NCBI RefSeq assembly: GCF_003626975.1
Contig: NZ_CP032616.1
Coordinates: 3,162,001-3,226,000 of the forward strand
Length of the DNA stretch: 64,000 bases
Reading direction: 5' to 3'
DNA from: Pseudomonas sp. DY-1
GTDB taxonomy: Bacteria; Pseudomonadota; Gammaproteobacteria; Pseudomonadales; Pseudomonadaceae
Position 1 is the first letter of the stretch. Every line of letters begins with the position of its first letter. Under the pieces are notes generated by a model that was not told where the DNA came from, made no database searches, and saw only the letters and a list, made by a program, of their open reading frames with translations. The position numbers and the translations under genes were made by a program. Positions 2,683-13,509 of the stretch are shown piece after piece.

Positions 2683-3846
2683 TTACAGGTAGAAGGCCTT
2701 CAGCGGCGGGAAGCCGTTGAATTCCACCGCGCTGTAACTGGTGGTGTAGGCACCGGTGGACAGCCAGTAGAGGCGGTCTTCGGCGGCCAGGTTCAGCGGC
2801 AGGCCGTACTTGTAGTTCTCGTACATGATGTCCGCGCTGTCGCAGGTTGGGCCGGCGATCACCACTTCTTCCATCTCGCCTTTCTTCTCGACCCAGATCG
2901 GGAACTTGATGGCTTCGTCCATGGTTTCGATCAGGCCGGAGAACTTGCCCACGTCGGTGTAGATCCAGCGCTCGACCGCGGTACGCGACTTGCGCGCCAC
3001 CAGCACGACTTCGCTGACCAGGATGCCGGCGTTGGCGATCAGGGAACGGCCCGGCTCCAGGATGATTTCCGGCAGTTCGTCGCCGAAGTCTTCCTTGAGG
3101 AAGCGGATGATTTCCTCGGCGTAGGTTTCCAGGCTGTTGGTGCGCTGGATGTAGTTGGCCGGGAAGCCACCACCCATGTTGATCATCTGCAGGGTGATGC
3201 CGTCTTCTTCCTTCAGGCGCTCGAAGATCACCTTGACCTTGGCGATGGCGGCGTCCCAGACGTCGATGTCGCGCTGCTGCGAGCCAACGTGGAAGGACAC
3301 GCCGTAAGGCACCAGGCCCAGTTGCTTGGCGAGGATCAGCAGGTCGAGGGCCATGTCCGGGTTGCAACCGAATTTGCGCGACAGCGGCCAGTCGGCCGAG
3401 GTGGAGCCCTCGGTGAGGATACGGACATAGACCTTGGCGCCCGGAGCGGCCTTGGCGATGTTGCGCAGGTCAGCTTCGGAGTCGGTGGCAAACAGGCGCA
3501 CACCCTTCTCATAGAAGTAACGGATGTCGCGGGCTTTCTTGATGGTGTTGCCGTAGCTGATGCGTTCCGGGCCAACGCCGGTCTTCATCACCTTGTCCAG
3601 CTCATAGATGGAGGCGATGTCGAAGTTGGAACCCTTGTCGCGCAGCAGTTCGGTAATCTCGGTGGCCGGGTTGGCCTTCACCGCGTAGTAGACCTTGGCG
3701 AAGGGGAAGCAACTGACCAACTGATCGTAGGAATCAGAAATGGTCTGCTTGTCGATCACCACGAACGGGGTTTCTTGCTTGTCGGCGAATGCCTTCATGC
3801 GCTGGAAAGTTTCGGGCGAGAAATAGTCTTCGACCTTGATCGACAT
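2683..3846 (-). CDS. speC: Ornithine/lysine decarboxylase, fold III (SpeC)
   Basis: A 387-residue PLP-dependent decarboxylase expected to convert ornithine to putrescine in polyamine synthesis. It belongs to the alanine-racemase-fold (eukaryote-like) group: the PLP lysine is in YAVKANP, the phosphate loop is in the GRSLIANAG region, and the cross-subunit catalytic cysteine is in GPTCDSAD near residue 320. The start MSIKVEDYF at 3846 has GGAG 8 nt upstream, so the further in-frame upstream start is rejected. From memory PAO1 SpeC (PA4519) has the same length. Expected to be cytosolic and homodimeric. Confidence 0.93.
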   Translation of the reverse strand: MSIKVEDYFSPETFQRMKAFADKQETPFVVIDKQTISDSYDQLVSCFPFAKVYYAVKANPATEITELLRDKGSNFDIASIYELDKVMKTGVGPERISYGNTIKKARDIRYFYEKGVRLFATDSEADLRNIAKAAPGAKVYVRILTEGSTSADWPLSRKFGCNPDMALDLLILAKQLGLVPYGVSFHVGSQQRDIDVWDAAIAKVKVIFERLKEEDGITLQMINMGGGFPANYIQRTNSLETYAEEIIRFLKEDFGDELPEIILEPGRSLIANAGILVSEVVLVARKSRTAVERWIYTDVGKFSGLIETMDEAIKFPIWVEKKGEMEEVVIAGPTCDSADIMYENYKYGLPLNLAAEDRLYWLSTGAYTTSYSAVEFNGFPPLKAFYL

Positions 3847-4286
3847 GCGAGGGACTCCATATGGCAAAACAAACGAAAGTTGTTAGGGGTGGCCAGTGTT
3901 GCGTTGGACAACAGGCCTGAACGTCTGATCAGTTTCCCCACTTTGGTTCGCCTACTTCCCAAGGCATGTCGCCGAGGATCTTCAGTCGTTTCCGACATCA
4001 AACCTCTCGTCGTCAGTACTTGAGCCGGATGGATCGTTGCCAGCATGGACGTTCGGGCGCGAACTTTAGGACCACAGGAAGCGCAGATCAATCAAAAATT
4101 GCCGCTTTCTTGCATCCCTTTGTCGCATCACCAGTTGACTGTTTCGAATCCTCAACAAAACGTCATGGAATGCTGCACAGACCCCGCATTTTCCTCTCGC
4201 CCGATGGGCGCCGCGAAGACCGTGAATACCGGTATAATCGCCGCCTTTTTTGACAGACCGACTACTCGTCGACGGATTCCATCTCA
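3847..4286. other. Divergent intergenic region between speC and prfC
   Basis: About 440 bp separate the two divergent genes. A TATAAT hexamer at 4233-4238 points toward prfC. The rest contains only short open frames with no recognisable product and no clear repeat. Confidence 0.5.
4233..4238 (+). promoter_or_regulatory. Candidate -10 box of prfC
   Basis: A perfect TATAAT lies 49 bp upstream of the prfC start in the context GGTATAATCGCC. No good -35 hexamer is visible at 16-18 bp, so the promoter is only partly supported. Confidence 0.4.
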
Positions 4287-6010: not shown

Positions 6011-6463
6011 ATGCGCTATCAAGGAAGGAACCTGCGCAAAGGCCGCTTCTCCGAGCCCGGCCGAATCTACCTGCTGACAACCGTCACTCATGAGCGAACG
6101 CCCGTGTTCGCACATTGGAGTTCCGGCTACCTGGTCGCCCGGGCGATTTATGCCATGCGGAATGGACACTCGCTGGAAACCCTCGCCTGGGTATTGATGC
6201 CTGACCATCTACATTGGCTCGTCCAGCTGCAGTCCGGAACCCTGGAACAGCACGTCAGCCGACTGAAGTCCCGCTCGGCGATTGCCTTGAATTCAATGAA
6301 GAAAAGTAGCGGGCGTGTGTGGCAGAAGGGTTTTCATGACCATGCCCTTCGCAGAGAGGAAGACGTGCGGACCGTGGCCCGCTATGTCGTTGCCAATCCC
6401 TTGCGTGCTGGTCTGGTGGAGAAGTTGGCGGACTATCCGTTCTGGGACGCAATCTGGTTGTAG
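6011..6463 (+). mobile_element. REP-associated tyrosine transposase (RAYT, Y1/HUH family)
   Basis: A 150-residue single-domain Y1 transposase of the IS200/IS605-related RAYT group. Landmarks: MPDHLHWLVQL supplies the HUH metal-binding histidines (residues ~60-70), and YVVANPLRAGLV near residue 120 supplies the nucleophilic tyrosine. These enzymes bind and nick REP hairpins and are thought to have spread them. The start ATG 6011 has GGGAG 8 nt upstream. The gene is flanked by a REP pair on the left and eight tandem REP pairs on the right, and its TAG stop (6461-6463) lies inside the first REP of that array. It looks intact. RAYTs are usually single-copy, domesticated genes rather than active insertion sequences. 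Confidence 0.92.
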
Positions 6464-7089: not shown

Positions 7090-8103
7090 TTACGGGTCGA
7101 GGGGGCCTGAGGTCCAGGTGCTCGACGGCAGTAAACCGGTGAACTTGGCCACTATCGCGCCCTCAGGGACCAGCCGGTCGCGATAGCGGGTGACCATCAG
7201 GCCCGCCTGGGGCGCCAGCAGCCGGTGTTCGCTGGACGGGTCGCCAGGAATGGCGATGACACGCGCGAAGCACTCACCGGCCTGCACCGCATCACCAAGC
7301 TCCCGCTCGAAAACCAGCACCCCGGCGGTCGGCGCGAACACGGTTTCCATATGCCCGATAGGCACTGCCGTACCCTGCCATACCGGTAATTGCGCCGGCT
7401 CGGCGACAACGCCGCGGCCACAGAGGAAGGTATAGAGGCCGTCGGCATCCTGCTGAGCCAGGGCGTCACTGACATCCCCCTGCCCGCGCAACTCGACGGT
7501 GGACACTAGCCGCCCCTCGACACGCCCCTCCGCAAGCCAGGGCGCAATCACCACCTCCTCGAAGGCGCCATCTCCGTCTCCCTCCCAGATGATCGCCACC
7601 TCGGCCCCAAGGGCTGCCGCAAGATCCTGCCCTGCTGGCCAGAAGCACTGGTGCAGGTAGACGTATTGCAACGCTTCGTCGTCCGTGTGCAGGTCCAGGA
7701 CGATGTCGGCATCGGCCGCGAGCCCGGCCAATGCCTTCTGCCAGACCGCCAGGTTGCCAACTGGCCGGGCCTGCGTCGCTGATGCGATGAAGCCGCGATT
7801 GAAATTACGACTGCTGGACTCGTGCACCCGACCCAGGATGCGCCCATGACGAAACTGGCCGATGCCTAGGGGATTGGCTTGGGGCACGACGGTCACGCAG
7901 CCGTACAACAGACCGTTTTCAGCAGCCTGGACCAGGCGCGGCAAGAGTTTGTGCAGCACCAGCATGCCGGCGATCTCGTCGGCATGGACCCCAGCCTGCA
8001 AGTGGACCCTGGGGCCCGGCTTGCCGCTGTCCAGGCGCCATGCCGGCACCCGCAGGCGTGCGCCGGAATCCCCTGGAATATTCAGGGAGACATCTTCGAT
8101 CAT
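7090..8103 (-). CDS. Succinylglutamate desuccinylase/aspartoacylase-family amidohydrolase
   Basis: A 337-residue zinc carboxypeptidase-fold (M14-like) enzyme of the AstE/AspA family, which removes acyl groups from N-acyl amino acids or related compounds. The zinc ligands are visible as GVHADE (His and Glu, residues ~38-43) and the later DLHTDDE histidine; the phosphate/carboxylate arginine-asparagine region SSSRNFNRG is also present. The C-terminal beta domain (residues ~245-330) resembles biotinyl-like carriers typical of the family. It starts at 8103, 98 bp from the divergent TetR gene. With the regulator and ABC transporter genes next door it probably processes the imported compound. The exact substrate is unknown; it is not the canonical arginine-pathway astE context. 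Confidence 0.8.
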   Translation of the reverse strand: MIEDVSLNIPGDSGARLRVPAWRLDSGKPGPRVHLQAGVHADEIAGMLVLHKLLPRLVQAAENGLLYGCVTVVPQANPLGIGQFRHGRILGRVHESSSRNFNRGFIASATQARPVGNLAVWQKALAGLAADADIVLDLHTDDEALQYVYLHQCFWPAGQDLAAALGAEVAIIWEGDGDGAFEEVVIAPWLAEGRVEGRLVSTVELRGQGDVSDALAQQDADGLYTFLCGRGVVAEPAQLPVWQGTAVPIGHMETVFAPTAGVLVFERELGDAVQAGECFARVIAIPGDPSSEHRLLAPQAGLMVTRYRDRLVPEGAIVAKFTGLLPSSTWTSGPLDP

Positions 8104-8201
8104 GTCCTACCTCCTCTGGGCCGCCGGACGAGTCCGGACGGTTGGTTTGTCGCCGGGCCAGGCGGTACTATCCCGGCCCATCGAGCGAAGGAAATCGCCC
8201 C

Positions 8202-8825
8202 TTGGATACGCCCCGCGAAAGACAGCCACGCACCAACCCCGACGAGCGCCGCGAGCATCTGGTGCGCGCCGCCCTGCGCTGCCTGGTTGCCGAGGGCCAC
8301 GCCGGTATTTCGGTGCGCCGCATCGCCAAGGAGGCCAACGTCGCCGTTGGCCTGATCAATCACTATTTCGGCAGCATCGATGCGCTGGTCGCGCAGGCCT
8401 ACGAGACCCTCGCCAGCGAGGTCAACCAGGCCCTGGTGGCTCGCATCGACGCAGCCGGCCCGAAACCTGCCGCGCGTCTCGAAGCCTTCCTGACCGGCTA
8501 CTTCTCGCCGGTCACCCTGGACCCCGACCTGCTCAGCCCCTGGGTTGTGTTCTGGAGCCTGATCCGCCATTCCCCGCAAGTGAACGAAGCCCACGAACGC
8601 ACCTACGGCGGCTCGCTGGTACTGCTGGAAAAACTGCTCTCCGAGTTGGCCCGCGAAGAAGGCTTTTCCATCGCCAAGCCGCGCCTGGCGGCCATCGGCC
8701 TCTCTGCCATGCTCGATGGCCTATGGCTGGAGTGGTGCCTCAATCCCGCCAACTTCAGCGCCGAAGAAGGCCTTGAGATCAGCCGCCGCTGGGTCGACAG
8801 CCTGCGACGCGGGGCCTATGCCTGA
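8202..8825 (+). CDS. TetR-family regulator, BetI-like
   Basis: A 207-residue one-component repressor. The N-terminal helix-turn-helix is clear (VRRIAKEANVAVGLINHYF, residues ~38-56), and the C-terminal part (LLSPWVVFWSL ... LDGLWLEWCLNP) matches the BetI-type ligand-binding domain. The frame is open upstream to 8040, but that extension is antisense to the neighbouring amidohydrolase. The best start is TTG 8202, with AGGA 9 nt upstream, giving the usual family length. It is divergent from the amidohydrolase and converges on the ABC operon, so it probably controls one or both. The ligand is unknown. Confidence 0.85.
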   Translation: MDTPRERQPRTNPDERREHLVRAALRCLVAEGHAGISVRRIAKEANVAVGLINHYFGSIDALVAQAYETLASEVNQALVARIDAAGPKPAARLEAFLTGYFSPVTLDPDLLSPWVVFWSLIRHSPQVNEAHERTYGGSLVLLEKLLSELAREEGFSIAKPRLAAIGLSAMLDGLWLEWCLNPANFSAEEGLEISRRWVDSLRRGAYA

Positions 8826-8943: not shown

Positions 8944-9642
8944 TTAATTCGCCCGACGAAACATGCTTCGTCGCTCCGCCAGGCCAAACCCGGTCTCGAT
9001 CATGAACGTCAGGCAGACGTAGATACCCGCGACAAGCAACAGCGGCTGGTAGATCTGGAAGGTCTGGGCACGCACCACGTTGGCGGCCCCCAGCAGATCA
9101 ACCACGGCAACGGTGGAGGCCAGGGCGGTGGACTTGAGCAGCATCACCGTTTCGCCGGCCAGGGTCGGTAGCAACAGGCGAATTGCCCTGGGCAGCCAGA
9201 CCCGGAACAGCACCAAGCGCTGGCGCATGCCGAAAGCCGCCGCGGCCTCCAGTTCGCCCCTGGGCACGGACTTCATGCCGCCACGAATGACTTCGCCGAC
9301 ATAGGCTCCCACCGAGAGCACAAGAGCGAAGACGATGTACCAGAAGCCATCACGCAGGTAGGGCCAGAGGAAGCTGCCACGAATCAACGGGAACTGGGCA
9401 AACAGGCTGCCCAGTCCGTAGTAGAAGATGTAGATCTGCACCAGTAGCGGCGTCCCGCGAATCACGCTGGTGTAGGCAAGGCTCGTCCCCGCCAGCAACG
9501 GATTGCGCGACATCCGCGCCAACGCCACCAACAGCGCCAGGACAAAGCCCAGCCCCGCGGAGATGACGAGGATGAGCAAGGTGGTGCCAAGGCCGCTGAG
9601 CAGCAGTTTGCCGTAGTCGAATATCCAGGTAGCGGTCATCAC
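8944..9642 (-). CDS. Polar amino-acid ABC transporter permease (HisM/ArtM type)
   Basis: A 232-residue inner-membrane permease with about five membrane helices. The cytoplasmic EAA loop that docks the ATPase is visible as EVIRGGMKSVPRGELEAAAA (residues ~120-140). It is the last gene of the transporter operon, after the other permease (9653-10363), from which it is separated by 10 bp. Together with the binding protein and the fused ATPase it makes a complete importer of the HAAT (polar amino acid) family. The substrate is not identifiable from sequence alone. Confidence 0.88.
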   Translation of the reverse strand: MMTATWIFDYGKLLLSGLGTTLLILVISAGLGFVLALLVALARMSRNPLLAGTSLAYTSVIRGTPLLVQIYIFYYGLGSLFAQFPLIRGSFLWPYLRDGFWYIVFALVLSVGAYVGEVIRGGMKSVPRGELEAAAAFGMRQRLVLFRVWLPRAIRLLLPTLAGETVMLLKSTALASTVAVVDLLGAANVVRAQTFQIYQPLLLVAGIYVCLTFMIETGFGLAERRSMFRRAN

Positions 9643-9652
9643 ACGCCCTCGC

Positions 9653-10363
9653 TCACACCGACGGGGTCCAGCGGCGGAAGCGCCGTTCGAGCCAGCCGGA
9701 AAACAGGTTGGAGAGCACCGTCAGCAGGTAATAGAAGGCTGCGGCGGTGAGGTAGAAGGTCAGGTAGTGGCGAGTCGAGCCGGCCGCCTGCTTGGCCGTG
9801 AAAAGCAGTTCGTTGGTGCCGACGACGCTGATAAGGGCACTGTCCTTGATCAGGTTGACCCAGAGGTTGGCCATGCCGGCCAGCGCATTGGGCGCCATGA
9901 TCGGCAAGGTCACCCGGCGGAACAGGCCGAACCCGCTCAAGCCGAAGGCCCGTGCAGCCTCGATCTGCCCATGGGGAATAGCCTGGATGGCCCCCCGGAA
10001 GATCTCCGAGGCATAAGCACCCTGCACCAGTCCGAGCACAGCGATGGCCACCACGGTGCCGTTGAGTTTGAGGTCGCCGTAGCCGAGCCAGGCGAACAGC
10101 TGGTTGAGCCCCATCGACCCCACGTAGTAGAGGAGCAGAATCAGCAGCAGCTCGGGTATTGCGCGGCAAAGGGTGGTGTAGCCACGCATCAGCTGCGCCA
10201 CTGGGCGCGGGCCGTTGAGCTTGCCCATGGCAACCGCCAGGCCGATCAGCATGCCCACCAGGAAGGCGCCGACGGAAATCTGCAGGGTTACCAACAACCC
10301 TTTGAGCAGCGCCGGTCCCCAACCCTGGGCACCGAAGCCGACCAGTTCAAAGTAAGACTGCAT
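9653..10363 (-). CDS. Polar amino-acid ABC transporter permease (HisQ/ArtQ type)
   Basis: A 236-residue inner-membrane permease with an N-terminal periplasmic/amphipathic segment followed by about five helices. The EAA motif reads EIFRGAIQAIPHGQIEAARA (residues ~120-140). It lies between the binding-protein gene and the partner permease. HisQ/HisM-type importers use such a heterodimer as the translocation path. Confidence 0.9.
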   Translation of the reverse strand: MQSYFELVGFGAQGWGPALLKGLLVTLQISVGAFLVGMLIGLAVAMGKLNGPRPVAQLMRGYTTLCRAIPELLLILLLYYVGSMGLNQLFAWLGYGDLKLNGTVVAIAVLGLVQGAYASEIFRGAIQAIPHGQIEAARAFGLSGFGLFRRVTLPIMAPNALAGMANLWVNLIKDSALISVVGTNELLFTAKQAAGSTRHYLTFYLTAAAFYYLLTVLSNLFSGWLERRFRRWTPSV

Positions 10364-10423: not shown

Positions 10424-11209
10424 TCACTGCTTCGGCGCGACGCTGACGTCGAAGTACTTGGCGGAGATGGTCTTGTAGTCCTCACTGGCCAGCAGCTTGC
10501 CGATGGCTTCGTCGAGCTTCGCCTTGAGGGCGACGTCGTCCTTGCGCAGGCCGGCCCCCACGCCGCGACCGAACAACGGATCGTAGGGCACCTCGCCCTT
10601 GTTCTCGATTCCGGCAGCCTGGGCATCGGGAGATTTGACGAAGGCGCTGACGGCGATCCCGTCGGCCATCATCAGGTCGATACGTCCTGCCACCAGATCG
10701 GCGTTCACCGAATCCTGGGTGTCGTAGTAGCGCACGTCGGCGATGCCTTCGTAGTGCTGCTTCAGGTAGTTGGAGCTGACAGTGGAGAGCTGCACGCCGA
10801 CCACCTTTCCTTTCAGACCTTCGGGACTGACGGTGACGTCCAGCGCAGCAGGCGCGGCCACTGCAACCGGGGTGTCGTAGTAGGCGCGGCTGAAGGCGAT
10901 CTGCTTCTCGCGCTCCTCAGTGACGGACATGGAGTTGAAGATCACATCCACCTTCTTCGCCATCAGGGCTGGAATCAGGCCATCCCAGGCCACCTCGTCG
11001 ATCTCGCACTGGGCCTGCATCTGCGCGCAGAGGGCGCGGATCAGGTCCGGTTCGAAGCCTGCCCACTGGCCGTCGGGCTGCTTGCTGGAAAACGGTGGAT
11101 ACGGTTCCGCCGCCATCGCGAACCTCAGGGTTTCGGCCTGCGCGCCCGCCGCGCCAGCCATGAGCATTACCGCACCCGCCATCCAACGTGCCAGTTGAGA
11201 CTTCTTCAT
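10424..11209 (-). CDS. Periplasmic amino-acid binding protein (SBP family 3)
   Basis: A 261-residue solute-binding protein. The signal peptide ends near AGAQA (residues ~20-25). The mature part begins LRFAMAAEPYPPFSS, the typical family-3 opening, followed by GFEPDLIRALC, the VDVIFNSMSVTEER motif and a ligand-contacting GVQLSTVSSNY region. It delivers the ligand to the two permeases encoded just downstream. The acidic DLMMAD and the family resemblance suggest a lysine/arginine/ornithine-type or derivatised amino-acid ligand, but this is inference. Confidence 0.9.
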   Translation of the reverse strand: MKKSQLARWMAGAVMLMAGAAGAQAETLRFAMAAEPYPPFSSKQPDGQWAGFEPDLIRALCAQMQAQCEIDEVAWDGLIPALMAKKVDVIFNSMSVTEEREKQIAFSRAYYDTPVAVAAPAALDVTVSPEGLKGKVVGVQLSTVSSNYLKQHYEGIADVRYYDTQDSVNADLVAGRIDLMMADGIAVSAFVKSPDAQAAGIENKGEVPYDPLFGRGVGAGLRKDDVALKAKLDEAIGKLLASEDYKTISAKYFDVSVAPKQ

Positions 11210-11276: not shown

Positions 11277-13280
11277 TCAGCGATTCTGGTGGGCTGTGAC
11301 GAACTGTCGGCAGCGCTCGCTGCGCGGTCTCAGGAAAACCTCCTGCGGAGACCCTTCCTCTTCGATACGCCCCTGGTGGAGGAAGGCGACGTGGCTGGAA
11401 ACGTCACGAGCGAAGGCCATTTCGTGGGTCACCAGGATCATGGTGCGACCCTCTTCCGCCAGAGAACGGATCACCCGCAGCACTTCACCCACCAGTTCCG
11501 GGTCCAGCGCCGAAGTGGGCTCGTCGAACAGCATGACCTTGGGTTCAACCGCCAGCGCACGGGCAATCGCCACACGCTGCTGCTGGCCACCGGACAGGAA
11601 AGATGGATACTCGTGGCGCTTGGCGGCGAGCCCCACCCGCTCCAGCAGTGCCTCGGCCCGCTCGATGGCTTCGGCGCGGCTTTCCCGCAGCACCTGGATA
11701 GGCGCTTCGATCAGGTTCTCCAGCACAGTGCGGTGGGGCCAGAGGTTGAAGCTCTGGAACACCATGCCGAGGCGGGAGCGAATCCGGGTCAGTTGCTTCT
11801 GGTCTGCCACCATCGGTTCGCCGATTCGACTGGTAGTGAGACGAATACTCTCGCCATCTACCGTAACAGTCCCCTGGTTGGGAATTTCCAGCATGTTGAT
11901 GCAGCGCAGCAAGGTGCTCTTGCCCGAGCCGCTGGCGCCAATCAGGGACACCACGCCGCCCTCCCGGGCGGTCAGCGAAACGCCCTTGAGCACCTCGAAC
12001 TGGCCAAAGCGCTTGTGGATCGAATCCACCTCCACCATTTTTGGCCGCTCCACTTTCGCAGACTGGATATCGACAGAAGCGGCCGAGCGCACCTCGATGA
12101 TCGAACCAGTCCCCAGGGTGGAGGCAAAGCGGCGGATGCGTGCGCACGCATCGGCTAGCTGGGCTTCACCCAGGCTATAGGACAGTCGCACGAAGCCGGC
12201 GGCGGATGGACCGAAGGCCGCAGCGTCCAGAACCGAGACGCCGGTTTCGCGGAACAGTCTCCAGGCAAAGTCCAGGGAACTGAGGCCACTGCCGCGAACA
12301 TCGAGCAGGACGAACATGCCCGCTTCGGGCTTCAGCACCTTGAGCGGCGCGCATTGCTGCAACGCATCGACCACCAGGTCGCGACGACGCCGATAGAGCT
12401 CGCGCATTTCCCCAGTCACCTGGTCGTAGGCGCGCACGGCGGTCAACGCCGCCTCCTGCACGAAGCCAGGAAGCCCATACAGCACGTTCAGCGCCAGGTT
12501 CTCGATGTGCGCCACCAACTCGGGGGCAGCGACCACCCAGCCGGTACGCCAGCCGGTCATGGCGTGGGATTTGGACAGGCTGCCGATGCTCACGGTGCGC
12601 TCGTGCATGCCCGGCAAAGTGGCGAAGTATTGGTGCGGCTGTTCGAAGGCCAGGCTCTCGTAGACCTCATCCACAACGACCCACAGGTCATGCTGCTGCG
12701 CCAGTTCGGCGATAGCCTGCATTTCCTCGGTATTGAGCACCACGCCGGTCGGATTGTTGGGGTTGGCGAAGAAGATCGCGCGGGTACGTTCACTCATGGC
12801 TGAGCGCAAGGCGTCGAGGTCAGGCCGGAAACCACCCTCCGCCGGACACGGGACCCGCACCAGGGTAGCCCCGGTAGCCTTCAACGTAGCTTCGTAGGTG
12901 ACGTAGACCGGATCGAAGACGATGACTTCATCACCGGCTTCCAGCAGGCACATGGCCGCGGCATAGAGTCCGTTCTGTGCGCCGGCCACGAGGATCGCGC
13001 TGTCTGCCGACACCGGTCGGCCGGTCAGGCGACCGTGCAGATCGGCGATGGCCTGGCGCAGCTCGGGGCGGCCGGCGACGTCACAGTAATGGGTGTCACC
13101 GGCCTGCAAGGCCTGGATGGCAGCTGTAGTGATGGGTTCTGGCGTGGCGAAATCCGGGTCGCCAATGCTGAGAACGATGACGTCCTCGCCTGCACGTTGA
13201 GCGGCGATGGCCGCGTAGTGAATATCCCAGGCGGCGGTGCCTGGCCCTGCCATTCTCTCCACAAGCGAAGCGAAACGCAT
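11277..13280 (-). CDS. In-frame fusion: class I/II aminotransferase + amino-acid ABC ATPase
   Basis: A single 667-residue frame. Residues ~1-390 form a complete fold-type I PLP aminotransferase: GDPDFATPEPI, NPNNPTGVVLN, a VVDEVYE aspartate/tyrosine motif and the PLP lysine in SLSKSHAMTGWR. Residues ~391-414 are a linker. Residues 415-667 form a complete HisP/GlnQ-type ATPase with Walker A GASGSGKST (448-456), signature LSGGQQQR and Walker B VMLFDEPTSALD. An internal ATG at 12038, preceded by GTGGAG about 9 nt upstream, would give a free 253-residue ATPase, the usual family size. No stop interrupts the linker. The gene heads the operon with the binding protein and permeases, and it holds the only ATPase in the locus. 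Either a true bifunctional protein or two products from one frame is possible; a sequencing error removing a stop is less likely but not excluded. Confidence 0.85.
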   Translation of the reverse strand: MRFASLVERMAGPGTAAWDIHYAAIAAQRAGEDVIVLSIGDPDFATPEPITTAAIQALQAGDTHYCDVAGRPELRQAIADLHGRLTGRPVSADSAILVAGAQNGLYAAAMCLLEAGDEVIVFDPVYVTYEATLKATGATLVRVPCPAEGGFRPDLDALRSAMSERTRAIFFANPNNPTGVVLNTEEMQAIAELAQQHDLWVVVDEVYESLAFEQPHQYFATLPGMHERTVSIGSLSKSHAMTGWRTGWVVAAPELVAHIENLALNVLYGLPGFVQEAALTAVRAYDQVTGEMRELYRRRRDLVVDALQQCAPLKVLKPEAGMFVLLDVRGSGLSSLDFAWRLFRETGVSVLDAAAFGPSAAGFVRLSYSLGEAQLADACARIRRFASTLGTGSIIEVRSAASVDIQSAKVERPKMVEVDSIHKRFGQFEVLKGVSLTAREGGVVSLIGASGSGKSTLLRCINMLEIPNQGTVTVDGESIRLTTSRIGEPMVADQKQLTRIRSRLGMVFQSFNLWPHRTVLENLIEAPIQVLRESRAEAIERAEALLERVGLAAKRHEYPSFLSGGQQQRVAIARALAVEPKVMLFDEPTSALDPELVGEVLRVIRSLAEEGRTMILVTHEMAFARDVSSHVAFLHQGRIEEEGSPQEVFLRPRSERCRQFVTAHQNR

Positions 13281-13509
13281 GTTCGGGCCCCATTGCTAAG
13301 GGTGGAATCCGGGTCACGGGACTGCATCGGCGAACCGGCGAGTGGGCCCAACCATAGCCCAGCATGAACGAGTGTTCAATAGCGTTTTCAGCCTTGTTTT
13401 CCCAGCCCTTGGCGATGCCCCGGGGCAGAGCGGATGCACCGAAAAAAGCCGCCCGAACGCCCCGGAAATGGGCGTGTCGGACCGGGAAAGAGCGGTATAT
13501 GCTGGCGCC

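What the first reader, a model, noticed from the sequence alone, without database searches (positions are those of the whole stretch)
11277..13280. Aminotransferase fused in frame to the ABC ATPase of an amino-acid importer
One uninterrupted frame holds a full PLP aminotransferase (to about residue 390) and a full HisP-type ATPase (415-667). An internal ATG at 12038 has its own ribosome-binding-like sequence, so a free ATPase might also be made. This is the locus's only ATPase, so the fusion would tether a metabolic enzyme to the membrane transporter, coupling import to transamination. I know of no well-described example of this architecture.
Basis: partly seen in the sequence, partly recalled or inferred. 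Interest (0 to 1): 0.72.

Follow-up and report, generated by a model that had tools for sequence, protein, structure and literature searches.

The report
Aminotransferase fused to amino-acid importer ATPase
In many Pseudomonas-type bacteria one gene encodes both a metabolic enzyme and the motor of the amino-acid importer beside it, and the motor appears to be made mainly as part of this fusion, so enzyme and importer are produced together.

Summary
Window 11277-13280 (minus strand) is one 667-aa frame: a complete class I/II aminotransferase, a linker, and a complete HisP-type ABC ATPase, followed by a binding protein and two permeases with no other ATPase. It is no assembly accident: 13 of 18 genus genomes and 53 of 398 family genomes carry it; 12 of 12 checked functional residues are invariant in 99 of 99 unique genes and both domains are under purifying selection. 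The ATPase halves form one clade. Burkholderia keeps matching parts, and the same palindrome, as separate genes. A free ATPase from the internal ATG is poorly supported: codon and ribosome-binding-like sequence are not conserved. Six of 67 genomes in one sample have gutted or excised the aminotransferase, in frame every time and keeping promoter and start codon, so the ATPase is most likely made from the upstream start. They also show that the transporter can be kept without the enzyme. A second enzyme-ATPase fusion (DUF2817) arose separately in Rhizobiales. Tethering is likely; coupling beyond co-production is unproven; substrate probably arginine-like.

The parts
11277..13280 (-). Fused gene: aminotransferase - linker - HisP-type ABC ATPase, 667 aa
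12117..13280 (-). Aminotransferase domain (residues 1-388); PLP lysine = Lys237 (role recalled); N176, D204, Y207, R245, R365 also invariant
12039..12116 (-). Linker (residues 389-414), hypervariable (1 of 26 columns invariant in 99 genes); residues 392-410 have pLDDT under 50
11280..12038 (-). ABC ATPase domain (residues 415-667), Walker A K454, Q509, signature S563, D586, E587, H619
12036..12038 (-).
10424..11209 (-). Periplasmic solute-binding protein, nearest to arginine and lysine/arginine/ornithine binders (SBP_bac_3)
9653..10363 (-). HisQ-like permease
8944..9642 (-). HisM-like permease
8040..8825 (+). BetI-like TetR-family regulator (ORF as listed; true start probably further in)
7090..8103 (-). 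AstE/AspA-family hydrolase; homologues near many other fused loci and in the Burkholderia unfused operons
13365..13378 (.). Palindrome TGAAC-N4-GTTCA, presumed operator; one copy in the 250 nt upstream of the start, 54-86 nt before it, in 99 of 99 unique fused genes
13374..13379 (-). -35-like element TTGAAC overlapping the palindrome
13351..13356 (-). -10-like element TATGGT, 17-nt spacer; TATGTT or TATGGT at this place in 102 of 105 genes

Best explanation
A conserved bifunctional protein. An AruH-like PLP aminotransferase is joined by a flexible linker to the sole ATPase of a polar-amino-acid ABC importer of the lysine/arginine/ornithine type. Shown or strongly implied here: both domains are intact and under selection; the ATPase is produced as the C-terminal half of the fusion from the upstream start and one conserved promoter that carries a palindrome. 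Inferred: the fused ATPase pairs in the transporter, so each importer (two ATPases) carries two aminotransferases, that is one enzyme dimer, at the point where substrate enters; the substrate is probably a basic or guanidino amino acid whose amino group is passed to a 2-oxo acid, the 2-oxo product going to an AruI-type decarboxylase where present; the BetI-like TetR represses the promoter until substrate appears. Main selected benefit: fixed 1:1 co-production, perhaps with proximity at the membrane.
For: Frame and domains. Single clade of fused ATPases (98/96). 12 of 12 functional residues invariant in 99 of 99 genes; in 20 chosen pairs dN/dS 0.05-0.19 for the aminotransferase and 0.004-0.14 for the ATPase, against 0.14-1.15 for the linker (18 of 20 pairs computable). 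Six in-frame losses keeping palindrome, promoter hexamers, start codon and first residues. Matching parts as separate genes in Burkholderia (order the same in 3 of 3 mapped; palindrome in 6 of 6). AruI-family decarboxylase (NF005712, cut-off 500) next to related aminotransferases: 770.8 in L058, 765.7 in L148 (a fused locus), 774.2 in L086, 730.7 in L080, 638.1 in L221. Binding protein nearest to arginine and LAO binders. Model: two confident domains, linker 392-410 not confident.
Against: No experiment. The transporter is kept without a working enzyme in 6 of 67 genomes, and 10 of 398 family genomes hold a free aminotransferase of 64-67% identity; in the 8 such loci mapped no binding-protein or permease homologue lies within about 8 kb, only ATPase-domain proteins of 30-31% identity in four. 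AruI was found at 1 of 4 intact fused loci searched for it and is not among the window's genes near the locus that were scanned. The Burkholderia TetR is only 34% identical. Side-chain-binding residues of LAO (recalled) are only partly kept in the alignment, so the substrate is unsure. pTM 0.58: the model does not fix how the domains sit.
Confidence: 0.62

Rival explanations
1. Co-production only: the fusion fixes stoichiometry and shared control, but enzyme and importer work independently and being tethered has no effect.
For: Both kinds of parting occur in nature: gutted or excised aminotransferase with intact importer, and free aminotransferases nested inside the fused clade (L109, L070). 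Linker sequence is hardly constrained and holds a translated REP element in three g9 genomes checked.
Against: Fusion kept in three genera with both domains under strong selection; a second enzyme-ATPase fusion arose separately in Rhizobiales.
Confidence: 0.35
2. Two products: the internal ATG also gives a free ATPase.
For: ATG with GGAG 9 nt upstream in the window; ATG kept in 77 of 98 located genes. Among these 77, three or more Shine-Dalgarno bases stand upstream in 57, against 655 of 1385 other in-frame ATGs.
Against: GTG, GTC, GTA or CGC in the other 21; matches of four or more bases not enriched (9 of 77 against 183 of 1385). Six of six aminotransferase-loss genes kept frame and upstream start.
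Confidence: 0.1
3. The fusion is cut by a protease in the linker into two ordinary proteins.
For: The linker is variable and low in model confidence.
Against: No conserved cleavage motif: 1 of 26 linker columns invariant. No direct evidence either way.
Confidence: 0.1
4. The aminotransferase domain is a sensor that gates the ATPase (trans-inhibition by bound substrate), as regulatory domains do in MetN or MalK (recalled).
For: Position on the ATPase and the two-fold symmetry of both partners would allow it (inference).
Against: Six of six checked aminotransferase residues conserved in 99 of 99, more than a mere sensor would need; loose linker; transporter kept after the domain is gone.
Confidence: 0.08
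5. Sequencing or assembly artefact.
For: None found.
Against: Fused in 53 of 398 family genomes, some of them single-contig assemblies.
Confidence: 0.01

Closest known systems
Histidine/LAO importer HisP-HisQ-HisM (PDB 1b0u for HisP)
   Same: ATPase (417-662 matches 1b0u, E 4.5e-96), two HisQ/HisM-type permeases, LAO-type binding protein
   Different: The ATPase carries a 390-residue enzyme at its N-terminus; the score stays below the HisP equivalog cut-off (358.3 of 466)
AruH/AruI arginine transaminase pathway of Pseudomonas (pathway recalled; AruI family = NF005712)
   Same: The domain is 52% identical to the aminotransferase that sits next to an AruI-family decarboxylase in the window's own genome (L086)
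   Different: Distinct clade, fused, with its own importer; substrate untested
Burkholderia unfused operon (L201, L206, L208): TetR, ABC, SBP, HisQ, HisM, aminotransferase, AstE
   Same: Matching parts and same palindrome
   Different: Separate genes; aminotransferase after the permeases, not before the ATPase; TetR only 34% identical
DUF2817-ABC ATPase fusions of Rhizobiales (L232, L233)
   Same: N-terminal domain, linker, HisP-type ATPase, then SBP, HisQ, HisM
   Different: Different N-terminal domain (PF10994, function unknown in Pfam); ATPases form a separate clade
Mycoplasma penetrans MetRS with appended aminotransferase (PMC7694997; abstract and four passages seen)
   Same: PLP aminotransferase fused N-terminally to a partner that handles the same amino acid; domains work independently
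   Different: Partner is a tRNA synthetase, not a transporter

Membership tests
Polar amino acid (HAAT/PAAT) ABC importer | ATPase with Walker A, Q-loop, LSGGQ, Walker B, H-switch | tested here: met
   one or two residues of each invariant in 99 of 99 fused genes; PF00005
Polar amino acid (HAAT/PAAT) ABC importer | Two BPD_transp_1 permeases and a family 3 binding protein in the operon | tested here: met
Polar amino acid (HAAT/PAAT) ABC importer | ATP-driven uptake of a polar amino acid | not testable with these tools
   needs a transport assay
HisP equivalog (NF007908) | score above curated cut-off 466 | tested here: not met
   358.3 bits
Class I/II PLP aminotransferase (PF00155) | score above gathering cut-off and catalytic K, N, D, Y, R, R (motif roles recalled) | tested here: met
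   240.5 bits against 19.7; residues invariant in 99 of 99
AruH arginine:pyruvate transaminase | groups with the AruH-type enzyme next to AruI | tested here: not met
   separate clade, 52% identity
AruH arginine:pyruvate transaminase | arginine:pyruvate activity | not testable with these tools
   needs an enzyme assay
GntC (NF041364) | score above curated cut-off 415 | tested here: not met
   303 bits
BetI regulator | score above BetI cut-offs (118 for NF001978, 201.3 for TIGR03384) | tested here: not met
   100.7 and 99.5 bits: BetI-like only

The most novel reading that the evidence does not exclude
Enzyme-armed importers are a recurrent class: an enzyme fused N-terminally to the ATPase of an amino-acid importer (aminotransferase in Pseudomonadaceae, the hydrolase-like DUF2817 in Rhizobiales, from separate ATPase lineages). 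The enzyme dimer rides on the ATPase pair and consumes substrate as it leaves the channel, a covalent transport metabolon.
Probability: 0.3. Interest if true: 0.8.

Novelty: new variant of a known kind. Interest (0 to 1): 0.58.

Why it matters
Whether enzymes physically attached to transporters gain anything over mere co-expression is an old question with few clean bacterial tests (my judgement, from recall). Here nature supplies fused, gutted, excised and separate versions of related systems, plus a second, separately arisen enzyme-ATPase fusion, so the question can be put directly by comparing fused and split versions. It also warns that naming by one domain hides transporters: many of the 120 listed database names call the protein only an aminotransferase.

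Tried and rejected
Assembly artefact: rejected by the relatives. Internal start: tested by codon and Shine-Dalgarno conservation and by natural losses; rejected as the main route. The background had wrongly included the tested sites; one search repeats it without them and shows an excess of three-base matches at the site, told in the rival. Fusions outside the family: no full-length aminotransferase-ATPase match besides the window's own among 274 class genomes at E up to 1e-90, and none outside Pseudomonadaceae among 349 phylum genomes at E up to 1e-100. L234, whose ATPase lies in a 584-aa open frame, I read as a chance frame, not a fusion. A linker or ATPase remnant behind the free aminotransferases: none found in 9 of 9, so their origin from the fusion rests on the tree alone. 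The first REP pattern was ill-chosen and gave low counts near the control; the corrected one gave 411, 568 and 828 matches on both strands in three genomes, controls 0. Literature: eight searches answered; no title or abstract start listed there describes an aminotransferase-ABC ATPase fusion. The library holds open-licence PMC papers only, so absence there is weak. Substrate from binding-site residues: inconclusive; residue roles of LAO were recalled.

Rows dropped before counts: 129 fused frames were reduced to 99 unique proteins; one of the 99 was not located by the linker pattern, hence 98. Trees used chosen subsets: 38 of 99 fused, 11 of 99 fused and 10 of 120 listed DUF2817 hits; one of the ten free g14 aminotransferases was left out of the tree. 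The dN/dS table used 20 chosen pairs.

Full report
What is there. Window 11277-13280, minus strand, is one open frame of 667 codons. Pfam finds a full class I/II aminotransferase (33-382) and a full ABC ATPase (431-590). Downstream on the same strand, with gaps of 67, 60 and 10 nt, follow an SBP_bac_3 binding protein, a HisQ-like and a HisM-like permease; a BetI-like TetR gene and an AstE/AspA-type hydrolase lie beyond. The locus has no other ATPase, though the genome has other HisP-type ATPases elsewhere (65, 60 and 56% identical).

Is it real. Thirteen of 18 genomes of the window's genus and 53 of 398 sampled family genomes, in three genera (13, 21 and 19 genomes), have a full-length match in one frame. 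In a separate sample of 398 genomes of genus g14, 67 have a match at E up to 1e-125: 61 in frames of 669 codons or more (frame length only; part of them read in full), 3 with a gutted aminotransferase and 3 with the ATPase alone. Named holders include P. citronellolis, P. nitroreducens, P. boanensis, P. mandelii, P. simiae, P. brassicacearum and P. yamanorum. Outside the family no further such fusion was matched: class sample of 274, phylum sample of 349.

Are both halves working. Across 99 unique fused proteins six aminotransferase residues (N176, D204, Y207, K237, R245, R365) and six ATPase residues are invariant (motif roles recalled). In 20 chosen pairs dN/dS is 0.05-0.19 for the aminotransferase and 0.004-0.14 for the ATPase, but 0.14-1.15 for the linker in the 18 pairs where it could be computed. 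The linker varies in length and keeps 1 of 26 columns. In three g9 genomes checked it holds an inverted repeat that is a genomic REP element (411, 568 and 828 matches on both strands), translated in frame. The AlphaFold2 model has mean pLDDT 85.7, pTM 0.58, and under 50 at 1-15 and 392-410: two folded domains on a loose tether, relative placement not determined.

Origin. In the ATPase tree all 38 fused, 3 gutted and 3 excised sequences used form one clade (98/96) with the unfused ones outside. In the aminotransferase tree the 38 fused sequences group with 9 free g14 aminotransferases (90/79, so not firm); two of the free ones (L109, L070) are nested inside a fused subclade with 100/97 support, the others lie at the base of the g14 group. 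One fusion with later releases is the simplest reading, but no linker remnant was found behind the 9 free ones. Burkholderia loci carry TetR, ABC, SBP, HisQ, HisM, aminotransferase and AstE as separate genes in that order (3 of 3 mapped; TetR only 34% identical) with the same palindrome (6 of 6 loci; between TetR and ATPase in the 3 mapped), a plausible picture of the state before fusion. Pseudomonads also have a second unfused operon with AruI-family decarboxylase and amidohydrolases; P. vancouverensis has both, so that one is a paralogous system.

One product or two. The internal ATG is ATG in 77 of 98 located genes, otherwise GTG (11), GTC (8), GTA (1) and CGC (1). Shine-Dalgarno matches of four or more bases stand upstream of 9 of these 77, against 183 of 1385 other in-frame ATGs; matches of three or more do favour the site, 57 of 77 against 655 of 1385, which keeps the idea alive. 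Nature's own deletions speak more plainly. In three genomes (L071, L147, L072) the aminotransferase has lost about 111 residues of its C-terminal part, a short piece near residue 145, part of the NPNNPTG region and different N-terminal stretches; the TGWR arginine is changed in all three and the PLP lysine in one, yet the frame runs on into an almost unchanged ATPase. In three more (L144, L145, L146) the enzyme is excised except for its first residues, joined in frame to the linker. Counting about eight separate deletions (my count from the alignments), chance would keep every one in frame about once in 6,500 times (one third to the eighth power; rough, assumes independence). Six of six keep the palindrome, the -35 and -10 hexamers and the start codon. 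A free ATPase from the internal start would have made frame-keeping unnecessary, and ATPase-only forms would still have been caught by the search. I therefore take the fusion as the main source of ATPase.

Control. The palindrome TGAAC-N4-GTTCA occurs once in the 250 nt before the start, 54-86 nt away, in 99 of 99 unique fused genes; 36 further copies lie elsewhere in these loci, in g14 for instance near the TetR and AstE genes. TTGAAC at its edge with TATGTT or TATGGT 17 nt on forms a promoter-like pair in 102 of 105 genes, the 99 plus the six loss genes. The window's copy at 13365-13378 is its only perfect match; allowing one mismatch, 4 matches were found and 4 or more arose in 5 of 100 shuffles, so the count in the window alone means little and the positional conservation carries the case. 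The palindrome is absent from the unfused loci L058, L190 and L229, and 80 of 230 loci held at that time have none. That the TetR neighbour binds it is inference from position.

Substrate. AruI-family decarboxylases (NF005712, above cut-off) adjoin related aminotransferases in five loci, one of them fused, and the binding protein is nearest to arginine and lysine/arginine/ornithine binders. I infer a basic or guanidino amino acid. Against certainty: the enzyme is in a different clade from the AruH-type enzyme of the same genome (52% identity), AruI is at 1 of 4 intact fused loci searched, and binding-site residues (recalled) are only partly kept.

A second case. Inspection of long frames led to Rhizobiales genes in which the domain PF10994 (DUF2817) precedes a HisP-type ATPase, followed by SBP, HisQ and HisM. 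Of 120 listed homologues 118 carry PF10994 with PF00005; 4 of 151 genomes of that family sample have it over nearly the full length. Some of the listed proteins also match PF24827, the AstE/AspA domain. Their ATPases form their own clade (100/99) away from the Pseudomonas fusion, with a warning about long branches. No paper in the library holds both 'DUF2817' and 'ABC transporter'.

Verdict. The fusion is real, shared by three genera of the family, and intact by the sequence tests made here. Co-production with tethering is the best reading; a metabolon is the bold one. Databases already give some of these proteins a double name, but the eight answered paper searches listed no study of one by title or abstract start.

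Noticed in passing
L232:3279-5291 (+) and the corresponding gene of L233: An independent fusion of a DUF2817 domain to a HisP-type importer ATPase, found in Mesorhizobium, Rhizobium, Agrobacterium and relatives (4 of 151 sampled family genomes).
   Followed up: partly
L033, L040, L041, L045 (genus g9), linker of the fused gene: A REP doublet sits in the interdomain linker and is translated in frame; hundreds of matches elsewhere in the three genomes searched.
   Followed up: partly
window 6011-6463 (+): IS200-like (Y1) transposase-type gene near the locus, possibly of the REP-associated kind (recalled).
   Followed up: no
window 2683-3867 (-): Ornithine/arginine/DAP decarboxylase-family gene about 3 kb beyond the AstE-like gene; relation to the locus unknown.
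   Followed up: no
L063, L148, L149, L150 and other g14 loci: An EamA-type transporter gene follows HisM in the g14 loci mapped but not in the window; in L147 its match is split into two pieces.
   Followed up: no
L190 (Aureimonas glaciei): A free aminotransferase 65% identical to the fused domain, closer than the Pseudomonas paralogues, with importer genes convergent to it.
   Followed up: partly
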